38,106 nucleotides of DNA from Rhodothermales bacterium (GTDB lineage: Bacteria; Bacteroidota; Rhodothermia; Rhodothermales; JAHQVL01), in assembly GCA_034439735.1 (NCBI GenBank), contig JAWXAX010000278.1, forward strand, positions 1 to 38,106. Direction: 5' to 3'. Positions 1 to 38,106 of this stretch are shown in pieces (positions within the stretch are counted from its first letter, which is position 1; each line of letters starts with the position of its first letter). The notes under the pieces are model-generated. The model saw only the letters and a program-made list of their open reading frames with translations, did not search any database and was not told where the DNA came from. The translations under genes and the position numbers were made by a program.

Positions 1-1
1 C

Positions 2-385
2 CAGTTCGACATCCTCGAGGCCATCGGGGCGCGGCTGCCCCGGTTCCCACTTGTGCTCCACGGAGCCTCTACGGTGAACCAGTTGGAGATCGACCGGATC
101 AACGGCCCCGGAGGACGGCTGCTGCCCGGCGCCCGGGGGGTCGACCCGGACGAACTCATCCGCGCCATCGAACGCGGCATCTGCAAGGTCAATTTCGCCA
201 CCGACACGCAGCTGCTATGGGCCCGAACCTACCGTGAGTTCTTCCGCGACCGTCCGGACCAGATCGACCTCGTCATCCCCGGCCGGCAGTACATGGATGC
301 GTATGTCACATTGATGAAAAACCGATTCGAACTGCTCGGCGCCTCCCACCGCGCGTTTGGCGTCCGTAAGAAACACCATGCATGA
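2..385 (+). CDS. Class II fructose-bisphosphate-type aldolase, C-terminal part (partial, 5' end outside window)
   Basis: Only the last 127 codons are visible; the frame is open to the window edge. Visible motifs are LVLHGAST (residues about 18-25 of the visible part), which matches the conserved zinc-ligand histidine loop of class II aldolases, and GICKVNFATDTQL, matching the conserved Lys-Asn-(Ile/Phe)-x-Thr-Asp phosphate-binding segment. The family cleaves or forms ketose phosphates with a divalent metal. Because it overlaps iolB by 8 nt and sits in an inositol block, the likely job is cleavage of 2-deoxy-5-keto-gluconate-6-phosphate (the IolJ role). That substrate is inferred from context; a glycolytic or tagatose-type aldolase cannot be excluded. 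Confidence 0.85.
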   Translation, partial: QFDILEAIGARLPRFPLVLHGASTVNQLEIDRINGPGGRLLPGARGVDPDELIRAIERGICKVNFATDTQLLWARTYREFFRDRPDQIDLVIPGRQYMDAYVTLMKNRFELLGASHRAFGVRKKHHA

Positions 386-1256
386 CTCTCCTCTGCTCCG
401 CAAACCGTCCGCCGGCGCTGGCTGGTACCAGCGCATCACCCGTGAAGAAGCCGGCTGGGAATTCCTGAATTTCGAAGCCCGCCTCCTCCGCCGCGACGAG
501 ACCTGGGCCGGCGACACCGGCGAGAACGAATACGCCATCGTGCTACTTGGAGGCAACTTCTCGGTGAGCTCCACCCACGGTACGTGGCGCACCGAACACG
601 GCCGCAAGGATGTCTTTAGCGGCATCGCCCATACGCTCTATTTGCCCCGGCGCACGAACTTCGTCCTGACCGCCGAAAGTGATACGCTGGACATCGCGTG
701 CGGCTGGTGCGCGACGGACCAGGACCGGCCGGCCTGTTTCAAACGCCCGGAAGAAGCCGCCATCGAGCTGCGCGGCGGCGACAACGCCAACCGGCAGATC
801 AACAGCCTGCTGCCTCCCGGCTTCGACTGCCACCGGCTCGTCTGTGTCGAGGTCTACACCCCTTCCGGCAACTGGAGCTCGTTTCCAGCCCACAAACACG
901 ACATCCGCACCATCAACCCGGACGGGACGCTGAAGGAGGCCCGGCTGGAGGAGACGTATTTCTACAAGATCGATCGCCCCCAGGGGTTCGCGATCCAGCA
1001 GGTGTACACGGCCGACCGCTCGCTGGACGAGATCGTGCGCGCCCACAACAACGACGTCGTGATGGTCCCACGCGGCTATCACCCCGTGGTGGCCGGCCAC
1101 GGGTACACCGTCTACTACCTGAACTTCCTGACCGGCAGCGACCAGTCACTCGCCAACACGGACGACCCGGACCACGCTTGGATTTACGGGACGTGGAAGG
1201 GCCAGGACCCCCGGCTGCCGCTCGTGACGGCCGCGATGAACCGCGCCGAGGGCTGA
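378..1256 (+). CDS. iolB: 5-deoxy-glucuronate isomerase
   Basis: A 292-residue cupin-fold protein of the KduI/IolB family, which isomerises 5-deoxy-glucuronate to 2-deoxy-5-keto-gluconate in myo-inositol catabolism in the cytoplasm. Visible metal-site residues fit the family: the AHKHD motif (His172, His174), a glutamate in LEETYFY (Glu191 or Glu192), and His235 in GYHPVVAGHGY. The length is close to the usual 270-300 residues. I chose the ATG at 378, which overlaps the aldolase stop (ATGCATGA), over an upstream in-frame TTG at 357 because the extra residues lie inside the aldolase gene. The overlap implies translational coupling with the aldolase. The call is firm because iolD and iolG follow on the same strand. 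Confidence 0.93.
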   Translation: MHDSPLLRKPSAGAGWYQRITREEAGWEFLNFEARLLRRDETWAGDTGENEYAIVLLGGNFSVSSTHGTWRTEHGRKDVFSGIAHTLYLPRRTNFVLTAESDTLDIACGWCATDQDRPACFKRPEEAAIELRGGDNANRQINSLLPPGFDCHRLVCVEVYTPSGNWSSFPAHKHDIRTINPDGTLKEARLEETYFYKIDRPQGFAIQQVYTADRSLDEIVRAHNNDVVMVPRGYHPVVAGHGYTVYYLNFLTGSDQSLANTDDPDHAWIYGTWKGQDPRLPLVTAAMNRAEG

Positions 1257-1291
1257 CTGACCGGTCGAGTGGGTGTCGATGGGTAATTCGT

Positions 1292-1314
1292 CGTGTAGGG
1301 TGCCGCCCTACACG
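1292..1314 (+). terminator. Hairpin after iolB, no T-tract
   Basis: A perfect 9-bp inverted repeat (CGTGTAGGG / CCCTACACG) with a 5-nt loop lies 36 nt after the iolB stop. No run of T follows, so it is either an mRNA-stabilising or rho-independent-like 3' structure or a degenerate REP element. The GTAGGG...CCCTAC core resembles the palindrome inside the RAYT gene near 28131. The rest of the 214-bp gap up to 1470 shows nothing else clear. Confidence 0.4.
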
Positions 1315-1470
1315 CGAATAGGGGCTCCGTTGCGGGACTGTTTCAGCGGCCGGCATTATTCTGTTGGCGGGTATTCTCCGGGGATATGAACCGCGCCTGG
1401 CGCCAGAAACGTCGCGCCGCCCGGACCTCGCCGGCGGTGCATCCGTGAACCCACTCGCTCCCTGAACGAC

Positions 1471-2409
1471 ATGCTTCAACCAACCCACCCTGTTTTCCTG
1501 GTAGCCTCCGATTTGCGCGACGCCTCGGAGGGCATCGTGCAGGCGGCTTCCGTTTTCGCCGAACGCGCCTGCGCCGAACTCCACCTCTGTCACGTGATCG
1601 AGCCCCGGGGCTGGCTGAGTCGCTCGGTCAATCTGCTTGAGCAGGCAGAGTCCGTGCAGCTGTACGGCATGGTCGAGGCGTCCGAACGCCTCCAAAAGCT
1701 CCAGAAACAGGCCAAGCACTGTATATCGCGTCGAACTCCGCCGGCCAGTATCGAGGTACTGACCGGACCCGAGGCGACCTATCAGCTCGTTCTGAATCAT
1801 GCAAAGAAGGTCGGCGCGACCCACATCGTGCTCGGCCCTCACAGCGGCACGGCCGCCTCGGCTCGGCTGTTGGGCACAACCGCCGAGCGTATCATTCGTA
1901 CCGCCTCCATCCCGTGCCTGCTGCTCCGCGGGCTGGTCGTACACCCTCCCGAACGCATCGGAGCCGCCATCGACCTCTCATCGATGTCTCCGCAGATCGT
2001 CGCGGAGGCCGCGCGCTGGGCGATGCGCTGCGCAGGCCCGGACGTGGCGACGCTCGCCACGCCGGCGTTCCAACTTATCTACGTCGGTTGGTCGGTCGAG
2101 CACATCGACAACCCCGGGATAGAGCAAACCGTTGTGCGTCCCGGCATCGAACAGGCCCTGGCCGGCGCCCGGGAAGTACTCGGAACCTCGCAAAATCTGG
2201 ACGCGCGGACGGAAGTCCGTTGGGAAAACGAGCCCGTAAAACCTATACTCCAGTGGGCCGCGACAAACCAGATCGACTTGCTTGTCGTGGGCACCCACGG
2301 GCGCAAGGGCCTTATCCGAGCGCTCCTGGGGAGTACGGCAATGGCCATCGCACGAGACGCGGCATGTCCGGTGCTTCTCGTGCCGCCACCCGTCGAAACC
2401 GAAGGCTAA
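1471..2409 (+). CDS. Universal stress protein, two tandem UspA domains
   Basis: A 312-residue cytoplasmic protein built of two UspA folds (about residues 5-150 and 155-308). The C-terminal domain ends with the ATP-binding loop GTHGRKGLIRALLGSTA, fitting the G-x2-G-x9-G-(S/T) nucleotide-binding pattern. The first domain has the diverged loop GPHSGTAASARLLGTTA. Usp proteins bind ATP or act as stress-response dimers; no enzymatic role can be assigned. It lies between iolB and iolD on the same strand and is followed 14 nt later by a second tandem Usp. The 214-nt upstream gap could hold its own promoter, so whether it is cotranscribed with iolB is open. Confidence 0.85.
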   Translation: MLQPTHPVFLVASDLRDASEGIVQAASVFAERACAELHLCHVIEPRGWLSRSVNLLEQAESVQLYGMVEASERLQKLQKQAKHCISRRTPPASIEVLTGPEATYQLVLNHAKKVGATHIVLGPHSGTAASARLLGTTAERIIRTASIPCLLLRGLVVHPPERIGAAIDLSSMSPQIVAEAARWAMRCAGPDVATLATPAFQLIYVGWSVEHIDNPGIEQTVVRPGIEQALAGAREVLGTSQNLDARTEVRWENEPVKPILQWAATNQIDLLVVGTHGRKGLIRALLGSTAMAIARDAACPVLLVPPPVETEG

Positions 2410-27853: not shown

Positions 27854-28456
27854 TTATTTGCGCCTTTCGGCCCACCGCAACGGGTTGTATTCGATGTACC
27901 GGCGAACGCGATTCAACCCGTCATGATCGCGGATGATGGATTCGTAATAATCCCGTTGCCATACCGGTTCGCCCGGGGTTCCGCGCAGGATATTGATGCG
28001 ACGTGCCGAAAATGTTTTCCATGCCCGCATGATTTCAGACAGGCCGTGGCGCCGGGGGGCGGCGTCCGTTGGTGGTGGCGTTGGGGTCGGACCGGGCAAT
28101 GACGTGTCCGGACGGGCGGTTGGGGCGGTTGTAGCGGGTTTTAAACCCGCCCCTACGGGGCCACCGCCATCGGCGCGGCCATTGCCATACCCCAACAATT
28201 GCACAATGCCATGCGCATGGTCCGGCATGACGACAAATGCATCCAACCGGACGTGCGGATAATGCCGCGGCAGATCATACCACGCATCCGCGACAGCCTG
28301 GCCCAGGGCATTCAGCCGCATCTGACCCTTTTCAATCCGCCCCAATCGAATGCGTTTGTCACACATACAAACAGTTACGAAATACCACCCTGGCCTGCTG
28401 TAGTCGTATCCCTTCAGCCTGATCGATCGTCGATGATGCTTACGGGGATCGAACAT
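27854..28456 (-). CDS. REP-associated tyrosine transposase (RAYT, Y1/HUH superfamily)
   Basis: A 200-residue HUH-type single-strand DNA nuclease related to IS200/IS605 TnpA. It begins MFDPRKHHRRSIRLKGYDYS, typical of one RAYT group, and carries the metal motif HAH (His80, Ala81, His82, in VVMPDHAHGIVQL) and the catalytic tyrosine in WQRDYYESIIRDHDGL (Tyr170 or Tyr171), ending RRYIEYNPLRW. RAYTs process and spread REP palindromes. Residues about 98-136 (GPVGAGLKPATTAPTARPD and a Pro/Thr tail) are an insertion not needed by the fold; its DNA is a REP-like palindrome. The ATG lies 3 nt after the stop of the upstream 633-residue gene. Confidence 0.88.
   Translation of the reverse strand: MFDPRKHHRRSIRLKGYDYSRPGWYFVTVCMCDKRIRLGRIEKGQMRLNALGQAVADAWYDLPRHYPHVRLDAFVVMPDHAHGIVQLLGYGNGRADGGGPVGAGLKPATTAPTARPDTSLPGPTPTPPPTDAAPRRHGLSEIMRAWKTFSARRINILRGTPGEPVWQRDYYESIIRDHDGLNRVRRYIEYNPLRWAERRK
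28131..28156. repeat. REP-like palindrome inside the RAYT coding sequence
   Basis: GTAGCGGGTTTTAAACCCGC runs into CCCTAC: GCGGGTTT (28134-28141) pairs perfectly with AAACCCGC (28143-28150) around one T, and GTAG/CTAC flank it. It is translated as GAGLKPATT-type residues between the HUH motif and the catalytic tyrosine of the transposase. Confidence 0.8.
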
Positions 28457-28459
28457 GCC

Positions 28460-30361
28460 TCATTCCTCGGGTGGCGACTCTTCGAAGGGCGTCTCCACCA
28501 CCCGGTCGAACGCCAGGCCGCTGGCGCCCTCGCCCCTGCCGGTCTGTTTCCGGGCGCCGAACCAGGTGACAACCTTTCCGCCGTACCACCGGGTTCGCTG
28601 GAACGCCTGGGTCATGCGCACGCCGGCTCGCGGCACCTCCTCCTCGTGGATGAAATACGGCAACGAGGCGTCCAATCCCTCGCGCAATAACAGGCTACGG
28701 GGTTCGATCTTCACGGGGGGGAGGCTCGCCGGCGCATCCTGCAGCACCCGTGGCAACGCGGCGCGTTGGAGCTGGATCTCGCGGTTGCTGCCCGGGACGT
28801 GCACGGGGATAAACGGTATCCAGTGTTCGGGCACGGTGTTCATCACCTCGTAGCGGATCGGGGCCTGGTACTCGATGTCGTCCGGCACGATCTCCCCCCC
28901 TTCCAGGCCCTGCCGCAGCAGACGCTGGTGGAACGCGCGGGTCTCGTAGCCGGCTTCGTTGCCGGCGCCCGACCCACCCGACGCCATCGGGATCCGCTTC
29001 TCCACCCCCCACACCATGTTGGCCATCTCGTCGCGGATAAGCAGCACGTCTTCCAGCGGCGGGCCCTCCTGCACTTTCGGGACGGTGGGCAGCAGGAGCA
29101 GACTCGTGTCCGCCGCGGCATCGTTCAGGCCGCGTTTGCTGACGGTGTACATCGCCCAACGCTGCCAGGCGTCGTCCGGGCCCTGGCCGGCGGGCTCCAC
29201 CCACGTCCGTTCGCCGAACACGTTGGTCACGGCCATCCCGCGGACAGTGGCGATGCTGCCGGCGGGCAGGGCGTGCGGGAGCAGAAACCAGTCGTTTGCA
29301 TACACGAGCCCGAACTCCATAAACAGCAGCTTACCGAGGTCGGTCGTGTCCGGCGCGATATCACCGAAGTTGGTCTTCCGGTCCTCGAACGCCCACCAGC
29401 GGGTGTTCGGCATCCCATCGTACGTCACCTGGACGGGCACAAACGACTGGGTGGTGGACGGCGGCGGCACACCGGCCGGCGGCGGCACGGGCGCCTCGCC
29501 GTCGATGGTCTTGAGCGCGGGATCGACATCGACGCTGTACCAGTCCAGCCGGCCCTGGTAGTATTCCTCGGCCGTGTACACCTTCTCGGCTCCGCCCTCC
29601 GGCGCCGAGCAGGAAAACTGGTATTCGAGATAACTCGGCTTCCAGGCGTTTTCCTCGGGCTCGTCGGGCTGGAAGTACAGGGCCTCGAACCAGGCGACGA
29701 AACGCGCCGCGAGGGCCGGCAACGCCGCGGCCTCGGAGGGGGATGGCGGGATCGGGAGATTGGCGCCCGAGTCGCCGCCAGCCTTCAGGTGCTGGTAGAA
29801 CCGGTACCCATCCATGGCCCGCTCGCCGGCGACGGCGGACACCTGCTGCCACGTCTGCCGATGGGCGACGACTCCCGCCTGGGCCGGGTCGGTCGGATCG
29901 GGGACGGCGATCCCGTAGGCTGTCCTGTACCCGGCGGCCAGCCCGATGCTGGCCTTTTTGAGCATCTTCCCCCACTGCCGGCCCATCGCGAGGCGGATGT
30001 CGAGGGCTACGAACTGGTCACCCACCTGGAACGGCAGCGGCCGTTGCTCCACCTGCGCCTCTATCGGGACCTCCTCCATGAACGGACGCGCCGGATGCTC
30101 CGCCGCCCTGTACCGGGTGAGCCGGGTGGTGGCCATATGGATTTTAGTGAAGATGGGCGAGCCGGCGTCGTCCCCCTGGAATTCGCCGAGTTGCCACTGG
30201 CGCGTGAGCATCCACAGCGGGTCGCGGATTTCCGCCTGGAGCGCTCGATCAAACTGGTCGGACCGCGGCCGTGCCTCCAGCCGGTTCCACAGGGTGACGG
30301 TGGGAAGCAACCGCTCCTCCAGCGCCAGCTCCATGTTTTCGATAGGGATGTATTCGAGCAT
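28460..30361 (-). CDS. Uncharacterised 633-residue protein, third gene of large-protein trio
   Basis: No signal peptide or transmembrane helix is seen, so it is probably cytoplasmic. I do not recognise a characterised family. Distinct stretches are LWMLTRQWQLGEFQGDDAG (49-67), RTWVEPAGQGPDDAWQRW (about 395-412), and DEMANMVWGVEKRIPMASGG (about 444-463). The mid-part is rich in Trp, Tyr and acidic residues, and the C-terminus is ESPPEE. The motif LWMLxRQWQLGEFxGxDAGSP looks strongly conserved in style, suggesting a real family of unknown function; I recall similar hypothetical proteins from several phyla but cannot name a domain. It is on the same strand as the 1875-residue gene, 217 nt downstream of it. 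The start ATG at 30361 has only a weak ribosome site; ATG 30334 is an alternative. Confidence 0.8.
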   Translation of the reverse strand: MLEYIPIENMELALEERLLPTVTLWNRLEARPRSDQFDRALQAEIRDPLWMLTRQWQLGEFQGDDAGSPIFTKIHMATTRLTRYRAAEHPARPFMEEVPIEAQVEQRPLPFQVGDQFVALDIRLAMGRQWGKMLKKASIGLAAGYRTAYGIAVPDPTDPAQAGVVAHRQTWQQVSAVAGERAMDGYRFYQHLKAGGDSGANLPIPPSPSEAAALPALAARFVAWFEALYFQPDEPEENAWKPSYLEYQFSCSAPEGGAEKVYTAEEYYQGRLDWYSVDVDPALKTIDGEAPVPPPAGVPPPSTTQSFVPVQVTYDGMPNTRWWAFEDRKTNFGDIAPDTTDLGKLLFMEFGLVYANDWFLLPHALPAGSIATVRGMAVTNVFGERTWVEPAGQGPDDAWQRWAMYTVSKRGLNDAAADTSLLLLPTVPKVQEGPPLEDVLLIRDEMANMVWGVEKRIPMASGGSGAGNEAGYETRAFHQRLLRQGLEGGEIVPDDIEYQAPIRYEVMNTVPEHWIPFIPVHVPGSNREIQLQRAALPRVLQDAPASLPPVKIEPRSLLLREGLDASLPYFIHEEEVPRAGVRMTQAFQRTRWYGGKVVTWFGARKQTGRGEGASGLAFDRVVETPFEESPPEE

Positions 30362-30395
30362 CTTGGTTGCAGGTTGTATTTGTAGTATTTGTAGG

Positions 30396-30580
30396 CCGGG
30401 TTAGGCCGAAGGCCGTAACCCGGTGGGTGGAGGCCTCTCCGCTCCGCCCCGATACATCGGGCCGCCGGTCGAGGTGACAATACATTACGAAGGCCGTAAC
30501 CCGGCGGGCATCGATGCCACGTTGATGGAGGCCTCTCCGCCCCGCCCCGATACATCGGGCCGCCGGTCGAGATGGCAATT
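30396..30580. repeat. Hairpin and direct repeats between the 1875- and 633-residue genes
   Basis: A near-perfect hairpin (CCGGGTTA-GGCC, GAA loop, GGCC-G-TAACCCGG) lies at 30396-30423. A repeat unit beginning CGAAGGCCGTAACCCGG occurs at 30407-30482 and 30488-30580; the second copy has a 17-bp insert. Each copy carries the palindrome CCCGATACATCGGG (30448-30461 and 30546-30559). The second copy ends on the stop codon of the 1875-residue gene. Confidence 0.85.
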
Positions 30581-33500
30581 AAATTGTATTGAACAATTGG
30601 TTATTCATCGCCAGGTTGAGCATGATGGTAATCGGATGCCGTGTGGAGGCCATGATGGCGGCCGGCAGGAAAGCGGCATAGGCGGACTCGTCCACCTGCG
30701 CCGGCTCCACCGCCCGCAGCCGCGCCTCGTCCATGGTTTCGCGAATGGAGTCGACGAGGTCGTTCCAGGTCCAGCCCCCATTAAACGCCGGCGACAGGGC
30801 CAGCAGGATCGTCTGCGGCGGCTCGCTGTTGGGACGGTCGTAGTGGAACGTGAGTCCGGTGGTCTCCTCCTTCGCCGGCACTACCTCGGTCCATTCATCG
30901 ACTAGCAGCCCACACTGGGCGGCGTTCCGGTCGAAATCCACCGAAAAATGGGCCGTATAGAGCAATCGATCCCCCACAAAATCATAGTCGTCCGGGAATG
31001 GCAGCGCCACCCAGCGGTCGTCCGCGCGGTAGGGTAGCTGGAGCGGCGTGAGCGTGAGCTCGAGCCGGCCGAACGCCTCGGCCAGGACGGACGCCTGCTC
31101 CCAGTGCCCCATCTTTTCGCGGACGCGGGCGACCCCGTAGAGCCAGTCGTCGACGGGGAAGTCGAGGTCCGGGCCGGCGGGGTCGGTGAGATGGGTGAGG
31201 AGTATATCCCGATCAGACCAGGCGTTGAGTATCTCGTCGGCCTGGTCGGGGCCGAGGGTGAACTCGGGCACGATCTTAAAATCTTCCCCGAACAGCGCCT
31301 TGCCGGCGCGCACCCGGGCGTTGGCGGCCCGGGCGGGATCGGCTTCGGCGGCGGCCTCGTCGAGCGCGGCGTGGGCCAGCGCGATGCGGCGGGTGACGGC
31401 CGCCCCGAGGGCGTCGATGCGGATGCGCAGCTCCTGCGCGAATCGGATGATGGCGTCTTCCTCGCTGGCGACGTCGATGGTTTCGATGTCGAACGCATCG
31501 ACCGGGAGCAGCGCCGCGATGGCCGCAGCGAGGCCGCCAACGGTAACGGGCGGAGCCTCGCGCAGCGCCAGGAAGGCCGCGTGGCGCGTGTCGAAGGCCG
31601 CGCGTTTTGGGGCGAGGGCCGCTGCGTAGTCCGCTCGGGTCGCCGGCTCGGGCACGGTGTAGTCGGTGGCGATCTGCGCCTCGGCCTGGCGCATGAAGGT
31701 GACGCCTTCGGCCTCGCTGGTGGCGACGGCGGCGGCATCCATCTTCGCGATGTGGGCGGTGAGCCTGCCATCCCACCGGATCAGCAGCGTATCGAGCAGG
31801 GCGAGGAATGCGGCGAAGCGTGTTTTCCGGCCGTCGTACACGAACCCCGGGGCGGCCTGCGTCATCCCAAACCAGACGGCCTGGCCGGCGAGCAGGTTAA
31901 ACCGGCCGGCCCAGATGTCGACCTCCGCGAGGATAGCGGTGCGGTTTGCGACGGGATCCGCGAGCGCGGCGTCGACATCGGTGAGAAGCTTGACGAGGTC
32001 GTCGCCGGCGGAGGCGATGAGTCCTTCGAGCCGGGCGAGCGGGCCGGTGATCCGGACTTCATTCACCGCCACCGTTTTGGCCGCCTCCTGCGTGGCCTCG
32101 TTGACGAGGGCGATGTCGGTCGCGACGAGTGGGCGGGAGCGGAGGACGACCGCGCGCAGGTGCCTCAGCAGCGCCGCGACCTCAAAAAACGAGTACCGCG
32201 CGCCCGAGGGCCGGCGGGTGTAATCCACCGCCACGGCCACGTCCGGGCGCAACACCCGGGAGCCGACGACAAACTGCACCACCCGGTCGTCCAACTCAGC
32301 CATGGCCTGTTCGAGGTCGGTATTCACGACAAACAAGAGGTCGATGGGCTGGAGGCCCAGCTGCGCCTGGGTGACCTCAACGGTGTGATCCACGCCGGCG
32401 GGGTCGGTGTACGCCGCGTGGCACACGACCGTTGAAGGATCCGGCAAGAGCCCGTTCATCCAGGTATTCACCGCCGGCTCGGCCTCGGCGCGGGGGCTGA
32501 CAAGCAGGGCATTCGGGGAGACGGTGCCGTCGAGGCCGGCCGGCAGGTGAATCCCCACCCGATGCAACAGCGTGAGGCCGCTGCGGGGGGTCTGGACCAC
32601 CTGCGGCTCGGGCGGGAAGGTGCCCCGAGCGTAGGCGTCGAGCGCGGCTCCCGTGCGGGTGTAGTTGCCCTGGACAGCCTGGTAGACGCCCTCGGCCATG
32701 GCGAGGTCGGCCACGGCGTCGTGGATGTCCAGCATCCGATTGACCTCTTCATCGACGGCGGCGAGGGCGCCGGCGGGGTCCGCCACGCCCAGGTCGGCCA
32801 TCGTCGGCAAAGCCTTCCCGAACGGGTAATTCGCCTGGCCCGTCGTGCGGATGTGGTCGGCCAGCGCGAGCCCGTCAAGCACGTTGCGGGCTTCGATAGC
32901 CTCGATGGCGTCGTCGTCGGCCGACTGCGTGTCCGAGATCCGGTCCGCCACCAGCGGGAAGGCTTTGCGCAGGGTGTAGATGACAATGTCGATTTCCACC
33001 TCATGCCGGTCGTGCAGGCCGCGCTCGAGCTGATAACCCAGCAGGGCGCCGAGCGTCTGCCCGTTCCGGATGCCTTCGATGACGCCAAGCGCCACCCGAA
33101 CGCGGGCCGACGAGAGGTTGACCTTCAGGGCGTCCGGCGCGTCGGACGTGGCGTTGGCGAGGTAGCCATTGCGCAGGACGGCCGCGGCAATGGCGTGGTT
33201 GATGGACGGGGCATGGATGAACCCGCCGTTGGTGCTGTCGCGGACGAGGACGGGCTCTTCCGCCGGCTTGAACACGTCCGTCAACTCGGCATCGAGTTCG
33301 ACGGGAGTGAGGACTTTGTTTTCGGAGCGGACGTTTTCGAGGTACCCGAACGCGCCCACGTACACGCCCCGCCGCACGGGTCCATCGTCCTGCGCGCGGT
33401 ACCGCATGGAGGCGATCTGGTAGTGCAGCAGTCCCCATCGCCAGGCGTCGAGGCGATACGAAACGAGGTCGAGGTGTTCGGCAAAGGCGCGCTCCAGCCG

Positions 33501-36206
33501 GGCCGTGGGCGTGGCCGCGAGGTGGTCGAGGGCGGTTAGTTGTTCGGTCAGGTAGCGCGTGCCGAATAACTCGCCAAGCATGCCGGGGATAAAATCGACG
33601 ACACGGAGCGCGTCGCTGCCGGTGATGGCGGCTTCGGGCCGGTAGAGGTATTCGTACCGGCTCTCGCTGCGCTGGTCGAGCTGGATAGGTTTTGCCGCCC
33701 TGGCGATGGGCTCCGCCGTGGCCGCCAGCCGTTCGCTCACGTGGATGAAACTCGGGTCGATCCGCGCCTGCTGGAGCTGGACGCGATCCAGCACCTCGAA
33801 CTGCTCGTAGAGCCGCAGGCCGGCGTCGAAATATCCCTGTTCGATGGCGTACCGGAGCAGCAGATACAGGAGCGCTGTCGGCGGCTGGTCGTTGGTGAAC
33901 CCATCCTGGAGGCGGACCTGGTCCAGCGACGTTCGCGCCGCCGCGGCCAGCCACTCGATGTAGTTAAGGCCGGTGTCGGTGTAAGCGCGAATCGGGGCGG
34001 TTTCGGAGAGCTTGACGTCGTCGACGATCGGGCCCGTGAGCTTGTTTGGGGATTGGAGGAAGAACTTCTCCAGGATCTCGGGGGTGACGTCGCCGGTGTA
34101 GCCGAGACTCTGGAGCAGGTTCATCCCGATGATCGGGTAGGAAATCCAGAAGGGCACCTCCTGGAACCAGGACCAGACCCCCATCAGCTTGAGCCGGTTT
34201 TCGACCTCCTCGCGGCTTTCGGCGTAGCGCTGGTAAAACTCGATGGACGACGGCGTTAGGCCGACGATGTCCAGCAGCAGCTGGTGCGGGTCGCCGGCCT
34301 GGCCGACAAACGCTACCTCGTCGGCCATAGCCGCCCAGTCGGCCCTCACTGTCTGAAGCAGTGGGTCGAGGCCCTGCAGGAACGACCGAAAGCCCTCGGG
34401 ATGCGGGACGCCGTCGGGTAGGCGCCACTCGCCCGACTTCAGCCAGCCCAGCCGGCTGTACACCGTGGCCGGCAGAATGCCGTAAGGCTGTTTGCCCACC
34501 CGGATAGCCGGCGCCAACCCCCGGCCGGTGACGAAGTGCGTAAAAAACCAGCGGGCCTCTTCGATGGTCTCGTCGGAGAAGACCGGCTGCATGAGGGTTT
34601 CCATCTGGTAGCCGAGCGTCGCCGGCCAGAGGGCGACGTTCATCGCGCGCGCCTCGCACTGGTCGCGGCCCCGGCTGTTGGGGGTGAGGTCGAACGTGGC
34701 GAGGTCCACCCCCAGCGTGTCCGCCAGCCACTGCCCGTCGAGGCGCGTCTGGAAGTCGGGGTCGTGGGCGAGCGGTTCTTGCTTGAAGACGACGTCGAAC
34801 GACGCGTCGGCGTCTTCGGTCAGCGAGAAGCCCGAGCCGGCGCCTTCCGTATTGTTGGTCGGCGATCCGTTCGGGAGGATTGAGAAACCAGCCGTGCCCT
34901 GTTGGTGGTGCCGGAAGAGCGTCTCCACCCCCTCTTTTGCGGCGGTTTCGTCGGCGCTGAGGCGGACGCCGAGTACCATCAGCTGGTCGAATCCGGCCTG
35001 CGCGTCGGCCGGCGAGAGGGTGATGCGAAACCCCATGCCCACGCGCTCGGCCTCGTCGAAATCCACCATCCACTGCATCGGGGCGCCGACGACGATGTCG
35101 CCATCCACCATCTGCAGCTGGTCCTCGGGCGGCGCGAGGGGATCGGGGCCGGCGATGAGCGGCGAGGGGATCATCTCACCCAGGTGCTCGAGCACGACCT
35201 CGTTGTTCCGATATCCCAGCAACACAAACCGCTCGGGCAACACGTTCACGCGGGGCGCCTGCGACCAGCTCTGCCGCTGCGCCTCGCTTTCCTGAAACGA
35301 CGGCAGATCAACAAACATCACCTGGACGACCGCGTCTGCTCTGGACCCCGAGGCCGGCGTGTCTGAAAAGTTCGCCGGCGCATAGTCGGCCGCAATCACG
35401 GCCGCCCGCTCGGCCCCGACGGCCGCTTTGAGCGCGGCCTGGGCGGCGGCGATCTGGACCCCATCCCCTTCCGCCCGCCAGGCAGCCGTCCAGTAGGTCG
35501 CCGCGGCCGGCCGCTCGGTCGCCGGCAGTGGCGCTTCGGCGGCGATGGCCAGGATGAGGTCGTTGGGGTCGGCTTTGGCCGGCCAGACATCGACATCCGC
35601 CGGCCGCTGCTGTTCAATCAGCCATGCAGCGCGGCCCGATCCGAACGAGCCCACGAGGCCGGCCCAGGCCGCGCGCTGCTCCGCTTCGAGGCCGCCGGCC
35701 TTCGCCCAGTTGATCCAGAAAAACCGGGTACTCTCGCGTTCGCTTTCGGACAGCAGCGACTCGAACGTATCCACCAGGCACTCGTCCGGATACACCCGCA
35801 CCCACAGCTGCGTGGCCGCCGCCCCGTCCACGGTAACCGGCTTGAACCGGGTTTCGAGGCGGACCGGGAAGAGCGCGATCGGCAGCGTCGCGTCCTTCTG
35901 GCCGAGGTTCTGGCGGGGGTCGGAAAACGGCAAAAAGGCATCGACCAGCCGGCCCTCCGCCGCCAGGCTGTCGGCCAGGGCGGATTCAAACTTGACCGCG
36001 TTGCCGGCCAGCTCGCGCAGCCGGGCTTCGAGCTGCTGGAGCCGTCGCTGGTGCGTGTCGTTTTCGGGATCGAACCGACGGTCGAGCTTAGCCCTTTCGG
36101 CCTCAGCCTGCCGCTGGCGTTCCCGGTTGAGGTGCAGCGCAAGCCGCGCCTGCTCCTTCTGCCGGCGCGCCTGTTCGAGATTGGTAGCGATAGGGTTGAA
36201 TGGCAT
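30579..36206 (-). CDS. Uncharacterised 1875-residue protein, second gene of large-protein trio
   Basis: A very large soluble protein with no signal peptide and no transmembrane helix. The N-terminus (about residues 8-75) is a charged coiled coil, LEQARRQKEQARLALHLNRE and onward. Recognisable conserved-looking blocks are LPIALFPVRLETRFKPV (about 106-122), LPERFVLLGYRNNEVVLEHL (about 328-347), RVGKQPYGILPATVYSRLGW (about 565-584), and a C-terminal ASTRHPITIMLNLAMNNQLF ending (to 1875). Long Ala/Asp-rich helical tracts fill residues about 1300-1600. I cannot assign a family or activity; no Walker, protease or nuclease motif stands out. The start at ATG 36206 avoids 14 residues read from the repeat region. 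The stop lies within a repeat copy. Confidence 0.85.
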   Translation of the reverse strand: MPFNPIATNLEQARRQKEQARLALHLNRERQRQAEAERAKLDRRFDPENDTHQRRLQQLEARLRELAGNAVKFESALADSLAAEGRLVDAFLPFSDPRQNLGQKDATLPIALFPVRLETRFKPVTVDGAAATQLWVRVYPDECLVDTFESLLSESERESTRFFWINWAKAGGLEAEQRAAWAGLVGSFGSGRAAWLIEQQRPADVDVWPAKADPNDLILAIAAEAPLPATERPAAATYWTAAWRAEGDGVQIAAAQAALKAAVGAERAAVIAADYAPANFSDTPASGSRADAVVQVMFVDLPSFQESEAQRQSWSQAPRVNVLPERFVLLGYRNNEVVLEHLGEMIPSPLIAGPDPLAPPEDQLQMVDGDIVVGAPMQWMVDFDEAERVGMGFRITLSPADAQAGFDQLMVLGVRLSADETAAKEGVETLFRHHQQGTAGFSILPNGSPTNNTEGAGSGFSLTEDADASFDVVFKQEPLAHDPDFQTRLDGQWLADTLGVDLATFDLTPNSRGRDQCEARAMNVALWPATLGYQMETLMQPVFSDETIEEARWFFTHFVTGRGLAPAIRVGKQPYGILPATVYSRLGWLKSGEWRLPDGVPHPEGFRSFLQGLDPLLQTVRADWAAMADEVAFVGQAGDPHQLLLDIVGLTPSSIEFYQRYAESREEVENRLKLMGVWSWFQEVPFWISYPIIGMNLLQSLGYTGDVTPEILEKFFLQSPNKLTGPIVDDVKLSETAPIRAYTDTGLNYIEWLAAAARTSLDQVRLQDGFTNDQPPTALLYLLLRYAIEQGYFDAGLRLYEQFEVLDRVQLQQARIDPSFIHVSERLAATAEPIARAAKPIQLDQRSESRYEYLYRPEAAITGSDALRVVDFIPGMLGELFGTRYLTEQLTALDHLAATPTARLERAFAEHLDLVSYRLDAWRWGLLHYQIASMRYRAQDDGPVRRGVYVGAFGYLENVRSENKVLTPVELDAELTDVFKPAEEPVLVRDSTNGGFIHAPSINHAIAAAVLRNGYLANATSDAPDALKVNLSSARVRVALGVIEGIRNGQTLGALLGYQLERGLHDRHEVEIDIVIYTLRKAFPLVADRISDTQSADDDAIEAIEARNVLDGLALADHIRTTGQANYPFGKALPTMADLGVADPAGALAAVDEEVNRMLDIHDAVADLAMAEGVYQAVQGNYTRTGAALDAYARGTFPPEPQVVQTPRSGLTLLHRVGIHLPAGLDGTVSPNALLVSPRAEAEPAVNTWMNGLLPDPSTVVCHAAYTDPAGVDHTVEVTQAQLGLQPIDLLFVVNTDLEQAMAELDDRVVQFVVGSRVLRPDVAVAVDYTRRPSGARYSFFEVAALLRHLRAVVLRSRPLVATDIALVNEATQEAAKTVAVNEVRITGPLARLEGLIASAGDDLVKLLTDVDAALADPVANRTAILAEVDIWAGRFNLLAGQAVWFGMTQAAPGFVYDGRKTRFAAFLALLDTLLIRWDGRLTAHIAKMDAAAVATSEAEGVTFMRQAEAQIATDYTVPEPATRADYAAALAPKRAAFDTRHAAFLALREAPPVTVGGLAAAIAALLPVDAFDIETIDVASEEDAIIRFAQELRIRIDALGAAVTRRIALAHAALDEAAAEADPARAANARVRAGKALFGEDFKIVPEFTLGPDQADEILNAWSDRDILLTHLTDPAGPDLDFPVDDWLYGVARVREKMGHWEQASVLAEAFGRLELTLTPLQLPYRADDRWVALPFPDDYDFVGDRLLYTAHFSVDFDRNAAQCGLLVDEWTEVVPAKEETTGLTFHYDRPNSEPPQTILLALSPAFNGGWTWNDLVDSIRETMDEARLRAVEPAQVDESAYAAFLPAAIMASTRHPITIMLNLAMNNQLFNTI

Positions 36207-36549
36207 GGCGGTGGATAAAATTAAAAACCAGTGTCTTCCCGACCGCATCCCCGCAAAAGCGCCAGGGCATCAAAACAACGTCGGCAATCCAAAAAAGGCT
36301 CTTTTTTAGCAACAACCTCACTTTCATCGTCATCCTCGCGCACGCGGGGAACCATAGATCGGTCGAGAATACCTCACCTGTCGTTCCTGGCTCGGAACTT
36401 CGCCACAATCAAAGCTCTCATGGGTCCCCGCGTTCGCGGGGATGACGATGAATTAAAGGGTTTTGCTGTAAAAACAGACAGATTCAATAAATGCCGTTAT
36501 TTCATTGACCTCTATGCTCAAAAGCGGGGATTTCGGTCGAGACGACATA
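36207..36549. other. Intergenic region upstream of the 1875-residue gene
   Basis: This 343-bp gap contains no credible gene. It carries an imperfect inverted repeat (36323-36354 with 36421-36452) and A/T-rich flanks. The leader of the 1875-residue gene must lie here, so it may have its own promoter. Confidence 0.6.
36323..36452. repeat. Imperfect 32-bp inverted repeat, GTCATCCcCGCG family
   Basis: Arms 36323-36354 and 36421-36452 match as reverse complements in 29 of 32 positions. The inner part (GTCATCC-CGCG...GCGGGGA-CCA) is the same family as the inner arms at 26869-26941. The spacer is 66 bp. It resembles a small non-autonomous element. Confidence 0.85.
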
Positions 36550-38106
36550 TCAGGTAGCCGGCAACATCTCCGACGCATGTACGGCGACGAGCACCGGCAC
36601 CTGGTAGAGGATGTAGGCCATTTCGGCGGCGCTGATGGCGGTATTCCAGGGGATCTGGATATCCTCCGCGTGTTGCTGGTCCATGCCGGGCGGCGGGGTG
36701 CCGGTGGGCGGTACGAGGGTGACGGCCGGCGGAGGGAGCGGCTGCAGGAACTCGCCGGGCAACACGCCGACATCGGTCCACGACAGGTCGCTCCAGGTAT
36801 TTTTGGTCCCTCCCGGCGCGCCGTCCTGGTCCACATCCAGCCCGAACCGGGGCTCGCCGGGGCGCTCCTTGATGACAAAGAACCAGCCCGGATCGTCGGG
36901 CAGTTCGTCTGATTCGCCCTTCGCCTCGACGGCCGTCAGGTCGAATCCGAAGAAGTAGATGTCGGGGTCCACCTTGGCCTCGTAGAGCGGCGTGCGGATC
37001 TTGGAATCGGGCGGATTGGCCTCTTCGGCCGGCGTGATGGCCGCCAGCCCGCGCGGCTTCGTTTTGTCGGGCGTGCCGTCCGTCTTGAGCACCCACTCGG
37101 CCCGGTGGGCGTAGATGACGGCCGTGGGATACTTCTTGAGCAGCTCGCCGCGGATGACGAGCACGAGCTCTTCCTCGTTTTCGCCGGGTTTCTCGCGGTG
37201 GTCGTGGTCGCCGAGGTCGGAGAACTTGGACCACAGGTGGATGGGCGGGATGTCGCGCAGTTCTTCCTTGAGTGCCTCGGCGTCGGCGCCGGAGCGGTCG
37301 AGGTAGGAGCTGACATCCCAGAACTGCCGGAAGTAGCTGCCGCGCTGGTCGGTGGGATATTCGCGCCAGAGCAGTTCGCGGCCAAATTCATGGTTCAGGC
37401 CCACCATGTAGGATTCGATGAACCGCTGGTTGGTCTCGAGCAGCGAGATGCTGTTTTCCTCGACGTACTGGATGTTGGGAAGGAACAGCTCGGCGGAAAG
37501 GTCCACCAGCGGCTTGTACATCGGCGTGTCGAACTCGGGGTACGCCATCGCCTCGACAAACGTCTCGCTGAGCCGGCGCCGGATGCGCTCCGGGATATGG
37601 ATGCGGATGAGCGTGCGCCGGGGAATGGTGACGGCGGGGTCGATGGAGAGAAACGTCTGCGTGCAGACGGCCGGCAGGTCCATGGCCACCGGCGCCGGCC
37701 GGGCGGAGACCTCGCCACTGGCCTGGATGAGCGTAAACGCATCCATCAGCCCCTGCTTAAACCGCACGCCTTCCGGGCTGTCGGCGCCGCCCGCGGCCGG
37801 CTGGAACGGGGCGCCGACGGGGGTCAAGACGAAGTTGGGGACGGTCGGCAGGCGGTTGATGGCCTCGGGCGTGAGCTGGTCTTCGCGGATGGCATCGGCC
37901 GTCTCTTGTTGCTCGCGGACGCGGCCGGTCCGCTGGAACAGCCACAACAACCCGAGGGCAACGGCCAGCGCGAGGCCGGCGAGCGACCCGAGGCCGGGCG
38001 TGATGGCGCCAAGTTGGGGGCCGACAAACACGACGATGAGCAGCAGGATGAGGAGGGCGATGACGAGGATCAGCGTCCGCAGCCAGGGGGCATCGCGGAG
38101 CCAGTC
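36550..38106 (-). CDS. Membrane-anchored uncharacterised protein, first gene of large-protein trio (partial, N-terminus outside window)
   Basis: The frame is open from 38106 down to the stop at 36550, giving 518 residues; the N-terminus is missing. Two hydrophobic segments lie at visible residues about 9-29 (LRTLILVIALLILLLIVVFV) and about 38-58 (GLGSLAGLALAVALGLLWLF), the first probably a true membrane helix pair. The soluble part has GLNHEFGRELLWREYPTDQ (about 234-252), LVIRGELLKKYPTAVIYAHR (about 318-337), PDIYFFGFDLTA and LSWTDVGVLPGEFLQPLPPP. I do not recognise a characterised family. It precedes the 1875- and 633-residue genes on the same strand, and the trio may form a membrane-linked complex. 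Confidence 0.8.
   Translation of the reverse strand, partial: DWLRDAPWLRTLILVIALLILLLIVVFVGPQLGAITPGLGSLAGLALAVALGLLWLFQRTGRVREQQETADAIREDQLTPEAINRLPTVPNFVLTPVGAPFQPAAGGADSPEGVRFKQGLMDAFTLIQASGEVSARPAPVAMDLPAVCTQTFLSIDPAVTIPRRTLIRIHIPERIRRRLSETFVEAMAYPEFDTPMYKPLVDLSAELFLPNIQYVEENSISLLETNQRFIESYMVGLNHEFGRELLWREYPTDQRGSYFRQFWDVSSYLDRSGADAEALKEELRDIPPIHLWSKFSDLGDHDHREKPGENEEELVLVIRGELLKKYPTAVIYAHRAEWVLKTDGTPDKTKPRGLAAITPAEEANPPDSKIRTPLYEAKVDPDIYFFGFDLTAVEAKGESDELPDDPGWFFVIKERPGEPRFGLDVDQDGAPGGTKNTWSDLSWTDVGVLPGEFLQPLPPPAVTLVPPTGTPPPGMDQQHAEDIQIPWNTAISAAEMAYILYQVPVLVAVHASEMLPAT

What the first reader, a model, noticed from the sequence alone, without database searches (positions are those of the whole stretch)
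28460..38106. Trio of large unassigned proteins: membrane-anchored protein, 1875-residue coiled-coil protein, 633-residue protein
Three consecutive - strand genes encode large proteins with internally consistent motif-like blocks (GLNHEFGRELLWREYPTDQ; RVGKQPYGILP; LWMLTRQWQLGEFQGDDAG) but no domain I can name. The first has membrane helices, the second a coiled coil and a giant soluble body, the third a soluble Trp-rich body. They probably act together, and size and order suggest a structural or scaffold complex at the membrane. The function is unknown; relation to contractile injection systems or other nanomachines is only one possibility and no tail, sheath or baseplate gene is seen here.
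Basis: partly seen in the sequence, partly recalled or inferred. Interest (0 to 1): 0.75.

Follow-up and report, generated by a model that had tools for sequence, protein, structure and literature searches.

The report
Unknown giant-gene system with swappable enzymes
The three big unnamed genes are most of a four-gene machine found, in the same order, in hundreds of unrelated bacteria and some salt-loving archaea; beside it sits one exchangeable enzyme gene, usually a protease, which suggests an undescribed system for holding or delivering enzymes at a membrane.

Summary
The three ORFs are genes B (5'-cut by the contig end), C and D of a rigid operon [enzyme]-A-B-C-D. A is a DUF6603 protein. 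In this genome the enzyme gene, A and the first 560 residues of B lie on contig C301; about 50-56 residues of B are missing between the contigs.

All four core families occur together in 77 of 95 loci tallied, from 13 bacterial phyla plus haloarchaea. B, C and D have no Pfam, NCBIfam, PADLOC or PDB-sequence relative, and D's model has no fold match. A is predicted as a large antiparallel beta-barrel-like body. B carries a transmembrane hairpin.

The gene before A is an exchangeable enzyme without a detectable signal peptide: trypsin-like, subtilase, metzincin (here), galactose-oxidase-like. Trypsins and half the subtilases share a C-terminal domain; 15 of 16 copies in 322 genomes sit at this locus.

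Best reading: a membrane-associated carrier for interchangeable enzyme payloads. Delivery is inferred (0.4); an internal protease-triggered death or defence complex is the main rival. No tail-sheath gene was found.

The parts
28460..30361 (-). Gene D, 633 aa, last gene of the operon; no known family; AF2 core (about residues 70-310 and 360-610) confident, no fold match
   Evidence: homologues in 83 of 97 loci
30161..30217 (-). Conserved block LWMLTRQWQLGEFQGDDAG of D (residues 49-67)
   Evidence: near-invariant columns in 58 homologues
30579..36206 (-). Gene C, 1875 aa (1889 from the upstream in-frame ATG at 36248); no known family
   Evidence: homologues in 92 of 97 loci
35967..36179 (-). Charged heptad-like, probable coiled-coil segment near the N-terminus of C
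   Evidence: read directly from the sequence; no coiled-coil program was run
34470..34502 (-). Conserved block RVGKQPYGILP of C (residues 583-593 of the 1889-aa form)
   Evidence: invariant or near-invariant columns
36550..38106 (-). Gene B, C-terminal 518 aa, cut by the contig end. The N-terminal 560 aa are on contig C301 positions 1-1680 (-) of the same genome; about 50-56 residues are missing in between
37927..38079 (-). Predicted transmembrane helical hairpin of B (residues about 10-60 of the fragment)
   Evidence: hydropathy 3.4 and 2.2; present in 70 of 93 homologues, positive charges on both flanks and hardly any in between
37345..37401 (-). Conserved block GLNHEFGRELLWREYPTDQ of B (residues 236-254 of the fragment)
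   Evidence: it supplied the pattern that found 482 relatives

Best explanation
The three genes are B, C and D of an undescribed four-gene core (A-B-C-D) that works with one interchangeable enzyme encoded just upstream of A. Shown by sequence: fixed gene order and sizes, wide patchy distribution, exchange of the enzyme gene, no detectable signal peptides, and a C-terminal module shared by unrelated proteases and almost confined to this locus. Predicted: A has a large antiparallel beta-barrel-like body, B has a two-helix membrane hairpin, D has a confidently modelled core without a known fold match. Inferred: the payload enzyme (here a leaderless metzincin peptidase) folds in the cytoplasm and is loaded onto the A-D complex, through the C-terminal module in the trypsin-like and part of the subtilase payloads. 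B ties the complex to the membrane, C and D form the body, and A supplies the conduit or pore through which the payload is exposed or delivered to a target outside the producer. Functionally this would resemble an effector-delivery machine, but none of its parts is homologous to a known one.
For: Rigid operon: A-B adjacent in 78 of 80 loci, B-C in 84 of 90, C-D in 76 of 80; median end-to-start differences -3, 12 and -3 bp. All four families in 77 of 95 loci. In a sample of 296 genomes of the phylum all six D-positive genomes have DUF6603; in the five where both lie on one contig A is 11-12 kb upstream on the same strand. Payload slot: a same-strand gene within 250 bp of A in 65 of 81 loci; families include trypsin-like 22, subtilase 12, M64/metzincin 6 and galactose-oxidase-like 5. 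Payload class changes 23 times on the core tree, against 24-27 in shuffles. Payloads lack signal-peptide-like cores (1 of 66 has one) and so do A-D, although characterised M64 peptidases have signal peptides (PMC12402451, PMC12237041). The shared C-terminal domain joins unrelated catalytic domains: all 22 trypsins and 6 of 12 subtilases. Of its 16 occurrences in 322 genomes, 15 lie directly upstream of A, two tandem pairs included. A: Foldseek's only hits under 1e-3 are outer-membrane beta-barrels (SlpA, FimD usher); porin-like VIA Z up to 14.2; alternating hydrophobic strands beyond all 1000 shuffles. B hairpin.
Against: No transport, secretion or binding was shown. A's model has pTM 0.49, and its VIA matches have rmsd of 10-14 A over 220-350 residues, so 'barrel' may only mean a barrel-like meander; A also occurs in monoderms and archaea, without a signal peptide, so it cannot be an ordinary outer-membrane protein there. 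The positive-inside pattern of B would put both large domains in the cytoplasm, which fits an internal complex as well or better. Half the subtilases and the metzincin, galactose-oxidase-like and unknown payloads lack the shared domain, so it is not a universal address tag. 16 of 81 loci show no close same-strand payload. The signal-peptide test was a hydropathy scan, not a dedicated predictor.
Confidence: 0.4

Rival explanations
1. Internal cell-death or defence complex. A-D form a membrane-anchored cytoplasmic assembly; the neighbouring protease, or another enzyme, is its trigger or effector, for example cutting A or B so that a membrane pore opens, as neighbouring proteases do for bacterial gasdermins.
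For: Leaderless proteases in most payload slots (40 of 66); predicted hairpin with cytoplasmic flanks; strongly amphipathic beta protein A. PADLOC models 'subtilase' and IetS match some payloads. Bacterial gasdermins are activated by neighbouring proteases (PMC9079055), and trypsin-like proteases are recurrently recruited by unrelated antiphage systems (PMC12799240).
Against: Galactose-oxidase-like enzymes, a tyrosinase, a phospholipase-D-like and a PhoD-like protein in the same slot are odd triggers. No PADLOC match for A, the own enzyme, B, C or D; only AbiEii and CARF_2OG once each among the further upstream genes. No obvious sensor or NTPase in the operon.
Confidence: 0.27
2. Envelope scaffold that displays or houses enzymes: a stable structural assembly that keeps a hydrolase or oxidase at the cell envelope for nutrition or matrix processing, with no injection or delivery.
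For: Many extracellular-type enzymes in the slot, with copper-chaperone families (PpoB2, DUF1326) among the further upstream genes; the first PDB match of A is an S-layer-complex beta-barrel; haloarchaeal D proteins are fused to lamin-tail domains.
Against: No signal peptides detected on any component. The SlpA resemblance is shared by many unrelated barrels.
Confidence: 0.17
3. A contractile injection system, Tc-type toxin or phage-derived particle.
For: Size of the proteins; a record labelled 'Bacteriophage sp.' carries B-C-D.
Against: No sheath (PF04984) in the genome; no tail, baseplate or toxin-complex family in B, C, D or the neighbours; no relative in IMG/VR viral contigs; no viral fold match for D. 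The 'phage' record looks like bacterial chromosome (LexA-like and ComEC-like ORFs).
Confidence: 0.04

Closest known systems
DUF6603 (Pfam PF20248), family of unknown function
   Same: Gene A is a clear member (413.6 bits against a cut-off of 27)
   Different: Pfam names only the domain; no paper in the library searched mentions DUF6603 or PF20248. The A-B-C-D operon, the payload slot and a second DUF6603 locus type without C or D are not captured by it
Extracellular contractile injection systems
   Same: Conserved multi-gene core next to variable leaderless payload enzymes, mobile across phyla (general knowledge)
   Different: No sheath or baseplate families, and no sequence or fold relation for B, C or D (fold tested for D only)
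Bacterial gasdermin-protease operons
   Same: Protease gene beside a possible membrane-perforating protein
   Different: Here four giant proteins without a PADLOC match, and payloads that are not only proteases
Type IX secretion substrates with C-terminal sorting domains
   Same: A C-terminal module shared by unrelated enzymes
   Different: The module here matches no Pfam family, its carriers have no detectable signal peptide, and it occurs outside Bacteroidota, for example in Cyanobacteriota, Chloroflexota and Actinomycetota
Outer-membrane beta-barrels (SlpA, chaperone-usher pores, LptD, porins)
   Same: Antiparallel beta meander with alternating hydrophobic strands in A
   Different: No signal peptide detected, present in monoderms and archaea; matches have high rmsd and do not define a fold family
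M64 (igalysin) metzincin peptidases
   Same: This genome's enzyme has HExxHxxGxxD (HELTHSFGVGD) and a partial M64 match
   Different: The Pfam match covers only the last 50 positions; no signal peptide, unlike ThomasA/IgAse (PMC12402451, PMC12237041)

Membership tests
DUF6603 (PF20248) | Score above Pfam's gathering cut-off | tested here: met
   A on C301: 413.6 bits, cut-off 27
Contractile injection system | Contractile sheath protein (PF04984) in the genome | tested here: not met
   No match in the own genome; control genomes rang
Contractile injection system | Inner tube protein (PF06841) | tested here: inconclusive
   No match in the own genome, but no control genome rang either
Contractile injection system | Tail or baseplate genes beside the core | tested here: not met
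   None among the Pfam families listed for 101 upstream neighbour proteins; for only the top 25 of 33 families were shown
Tc toxin complex | TcA/TcB/TcC Pfam domains | tested here: not met
   No Pfam match in B, C or D; A matches DUF6603 only
Known antiphage systems (PADLOC) | Core proteins match a PADLOC model | tested here: not met
   No match for A, own enzyme, B fragment, C or D
Bacterial gasdermin | Gasdermin-fold pore protein released by proteolysis | not tested
   PADLOC gives no match, but no gasdermin model or fold was searched specifically; B and C were not folded
Type IX secretion substrate | T9SS sorting-domain family in the shared C-terminal module | tested here: not met
   Pfam shows only catalytic or NAL1-type domains in the carriers; NCBIfam was not run on the module
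Outer-membrane beta-barrel | N-terminal signal peptide for export | tested here: not met
   0 of 82 A proteins have a signal-like hydrophobic core in their first residues (hydropathy scan only)
Outer-membrane beta-barrel | Closed antiparallel barrel with alternating hydrophobic strands | tested here: inconclusive
   Barrel-like matches with Z up to 14.2 but rmsd 10-14 A, pTM 0.49; alternation strong
M64/metzincin peptidase (own payload) | Zinc motif HExxHxxG/NxxH/D | tested here: met
   HELTHSFGVGD at residue 534; consensus from PMC12237041
M64/metzincin peptidase (own payload) | Full-length family match | tested here: inconclusive
   Positions 255-302 of 302 only, 33 bits against a cut-off of 26 on the protein; below the cut-off in the six-frame search

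The most novel reading that the evidence does not exclude
A new class of protein-delivery machine, unrelated in sequence to every known secretion or injection system and shared by bacteria and haloarchaea, in which a beta-barrel-like protein without a signal peptide, a hairpin-anchored protein and two giant body proteins carry interchangeable enzymes, some of them addressed by a dedicated C-terminal module.
Probability: 0.35. Interest if true: 0.93.

Novelty: categorically new. Interest (0 to 1): 0.77.

Why it matters
A core of about 4,700-4,800 amino acids, kept in one order across 13 bacterial phyla and haloarchaea (at least 482 genome loci found with a single pattern), appears to have no described function: no paper in the library searched names its only catalogued domain. 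Its exchangeable enzyme slot and near-locus-specific C-terminal module make the function testable at once: bind the module to A, B, C or D, and find where the enzyme ends up. If it delivers enzymes it is a new machine class and possibly a useful protein carrier; if it is a death or defence complex it is a large new immune system. Either way it names genes that are now annotated 'hypothetical' in many environmental bacteria.

Tried and rejected
Family libraries (Pfam, NCBIfam, PHROGs, PADLOC) and PDB sequence profiles: nothing for B, C, D; the PDB profile hits of A and C are helical coils of no meaning. Fold search of D in PDB and in viral models: nothing; a missing match does not prove a new fold. 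Profile comparison B-C, D-C, A-B: no relation. Sheath and tube searches: no sheath; tube result uninformative. IMG/VR scan: no relative. Literature searches for DUF6603, PF20248, four-gene operons, lamin-tail proteins and NAL1-like bacterial proteases: nothing on this system. 'The C-terminal module is exclusive to the locus' was tested and weakened: one stand-alone copy exists (G124). 'A payload is fused to A in L141 or L134' could not be shown: the extra N-terminal stretch of L134 has no Pfam domain, and that of L141 was not scanned.
Full report
1. Observation. The three ORFs exist at the stated places. C is 1875 aa from the ATG at 36206, which agrees with its homologues, or 1889 aa from an upstream ATG. 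The first gene (B) runs into the end of contig C278, which is exactly 38106 bases long. None of the three matches Pfam, NCBIfam, PHROGs (best E 0.27), PADLOC or a PDB sequence.

2. The other half of the operon. The genome has two DUF6603 genes. One, on contig C301, ends where a 560-aa N-terminal piece of B begins, and that piece runs into the contig start. Aligned to intact B proteins, the piece ends at residue 555-578 and the window piece begins at about 606-629, so roughly 50-56 residues are missing; the contig ends share no bases. Upstream of A on C301 is an 827-aa protein with HELTHSFGVGDEY, a metzincin zinc motif, and a weak M64 match. The unit is therefore [peptidase]-A-B-C-D. The join is an inference from order, frame and homology, not a sequenced junction. 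D is followed in the window by a transposase-like gene.

3. Distribution. tblastn with D finds relatives on plasmids of Streptomyces, Nocardia, Gemmatirosa, Rhizobium, Paraburkholderia and four haloarchaea. A scan of 84,980 genomes with one B pattern gives 482 confirmed relatives, of which 80 loci were fetched. With the plasmid loci, A-B-C-D adjacency holds almost throughout, and complete sets occur in 13 named bacterial phyla plus haloarchaea. Yet the system is rare in any group: D in 6 of 296 genomes of the window's phylum, and C in no genome of 98 relatives other than the window's own. On a tree of D the phylum label changes 23 times (least possible 12), and the window's D groups with cyanobacteria. 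The window's phylum is probably Bacteroidota: D-positive genome G295 has a contig of the same length (68078) and the same gene sizes as the Chlorobiaceae locus L077. Horizontal spread is the simplest reading; the tree alone does not prove it. IMG/VR holds no relative.

4. Parts. A: AF2 model of the L021 homologue, pLDDT 81.6 but pTM 0.49; N-terminal helices followed by some 30 antiparallel strands. Foldseek's four hits under 1e-3 are the SlpA barrels and the FimD usher; VIA-align gives porins, LamB, MtrB and similar, Z up to 14.2 with rmsd 10-14 A. Strand residues alternate between hydrophobic and polar far beyond shuffles. This supports a barrel-like or membrane-inserting beta protein, not a specific family. 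B: two hydrophobic helices in the middle, in 70 of 93 homologues, with positive charges at both outer ends, which suggests a hairpin with both large domains on one side. C: a probable coiled coil at the N-terminus, then a large body without a known relative. D: AF2 pLDDT 80.5, pTM 0.76, well-modelled core, no match in PDB or viral models. None of A-D has a signal-peptide-like core. B-C, D-C and A-B profiles are unrelated to each other.

5. The enzyme slot. In 65 of 81 loci a same-strand gene lies within 250 bp before A. Its families: trypsin-like with NAL1-type features (22), subtilase (12), an unknown family (9), M64/metzincin (6), galactose-oxidase-like (5), and single cases such as tyrosinase, phospholipase-D-like and PhoD-like proteins. 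Along the D tree the class of enzyme changes 23 times, against 24-27 in 50 shuffles, so the slot is exchanged almost independently of the core. One of 66 has a signal-like core. D is usually the last gene: 55 of 80 loci have no close same-strand gene after it.

6. A shared C-terminal module. All 22 trypsin-like and 6 of 12 subtilase payloads share about 100 residues near the C-terminus. A profile of it in 26 whole genomes of fetched loci gives 13 hits in 11 genomes, every one directly upstream of A, with two tandem pairs (positions compared with the loci). In 296 genomes of the phylum it gives three hits: two at the locus, one stand-alone next to a patatin-like gene. That makes 15 of 16. A module fused to unrelated catalytic domains and nearly confined to one operon is best read as a docking or loading domain; binding was not tested.

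7. Second locus type. DUF6603 also occurs without C and D (7 of 13 DUF6603-positive genomes in the sample lack D; also contig C70 of this genome). There A is about 1,300-1,700 aa (3,223 aa in one case), in five of seven fetched loci followed by a protein with weak similarity to the B N-terminus, and often by a 1,200-1,400-aa unknown protein; upstream lie metallo-beta-lactamase-fold or DUF4135 proteins, and in C70 proteins with S74 and LamG domains. DUF6603 is thus the hallmark of a broader kind of cluster.

8. Mechanism. The best-supported picture is a membrane-associated carrier for interchangeable enzymes. Shown: order, co-occurrence, exchange, shared module, no signal-like cores. Predicted: barrel-like A, hairpin in B. 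Inferred: docking, and delivery or display. The chief rival is an internal complex in which the enzyme triggers membrane damage, as in bacterial gasdermin operons (PMC9079055); the cytoplasmic flanks predicted for B and the many proteases speak for it, while the oxidases and the absence of PADLOC matches for the core speak against it. Contractile or phage-derived origin is disfavoured.

9. Novelty. Nothing found in the libraries or in 5.39 million open papers describes the system; subscription literature was not searched. It is called categorically new because no core part other than the unnamed DUF6603 domain belongs to a catalogued family, and because the architecture is not that of a known system; the functional class itself stays open.

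Noticed in passing
window 27854-28456 (-): 200-aa gene 3 bp downstream of D resembles REP-associated tyrosine transposases (Y1_Tnp E 3.7e-5; NF047646 63.5 bits, below its cut-off of 80), a possible sign of mobility.
   Followed up: no
L019 4258-18781 (own genome, contig C70): A second DUF6603 locus of another type: 1260-aa unknown, S74 endosialidase-chaperone protein, 384-aa unknown, 1506-aa DUF6603 protein and a LamG-domain protein; no B, C or D.
   Followed up: partly
L131-L137: Type-2 DUF6603 clusters in other genomes of the phylum, several with a shortened B-like protein and a 1,200-1,400-aa unknown; upstream enzymes are metallo-beta-lactamase-fold or DUF4135 proteins.
   Followed up: partly
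L005 (GenBank MT835531.1): A record filed as 'Bacteriophage sp.' from human faeces carries B-C-D but otherwise looks like actinobacterial chromosome (LexA-like and ComEC-like ORFs), so it is probably mislabelled.
   Followed up: partly
L147 17380-18792 (record 573379-574791, -): A stand-alone trypsin-like protein with the C-terminal module, without A-B-C-D, beside a patatin-like ORF.
   Followed up: partly
L004, L009, L012: In haloarchaeal plasmids D is annotated as carrying a lamin-tail domain, and C is enlarged to 2,300-3,200 aa, with a BGTF surface domain in two.
   Followed up: no
L003 22301-37005: The Rhizobium plasmid locus has CVNH lectin, LGFP-repeat, GH25 lysozyme and glucosaminidase genes beyond D, hinting at carbohydrate or cell-wall targets.
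   Followed up: no
L141 13626-19901 (-): A-type ORF of at least 2,091 aa in which the A match starts near residue 1161; the long N-terminal extension could be a fused payload, not resolved.
   Followed up: partly
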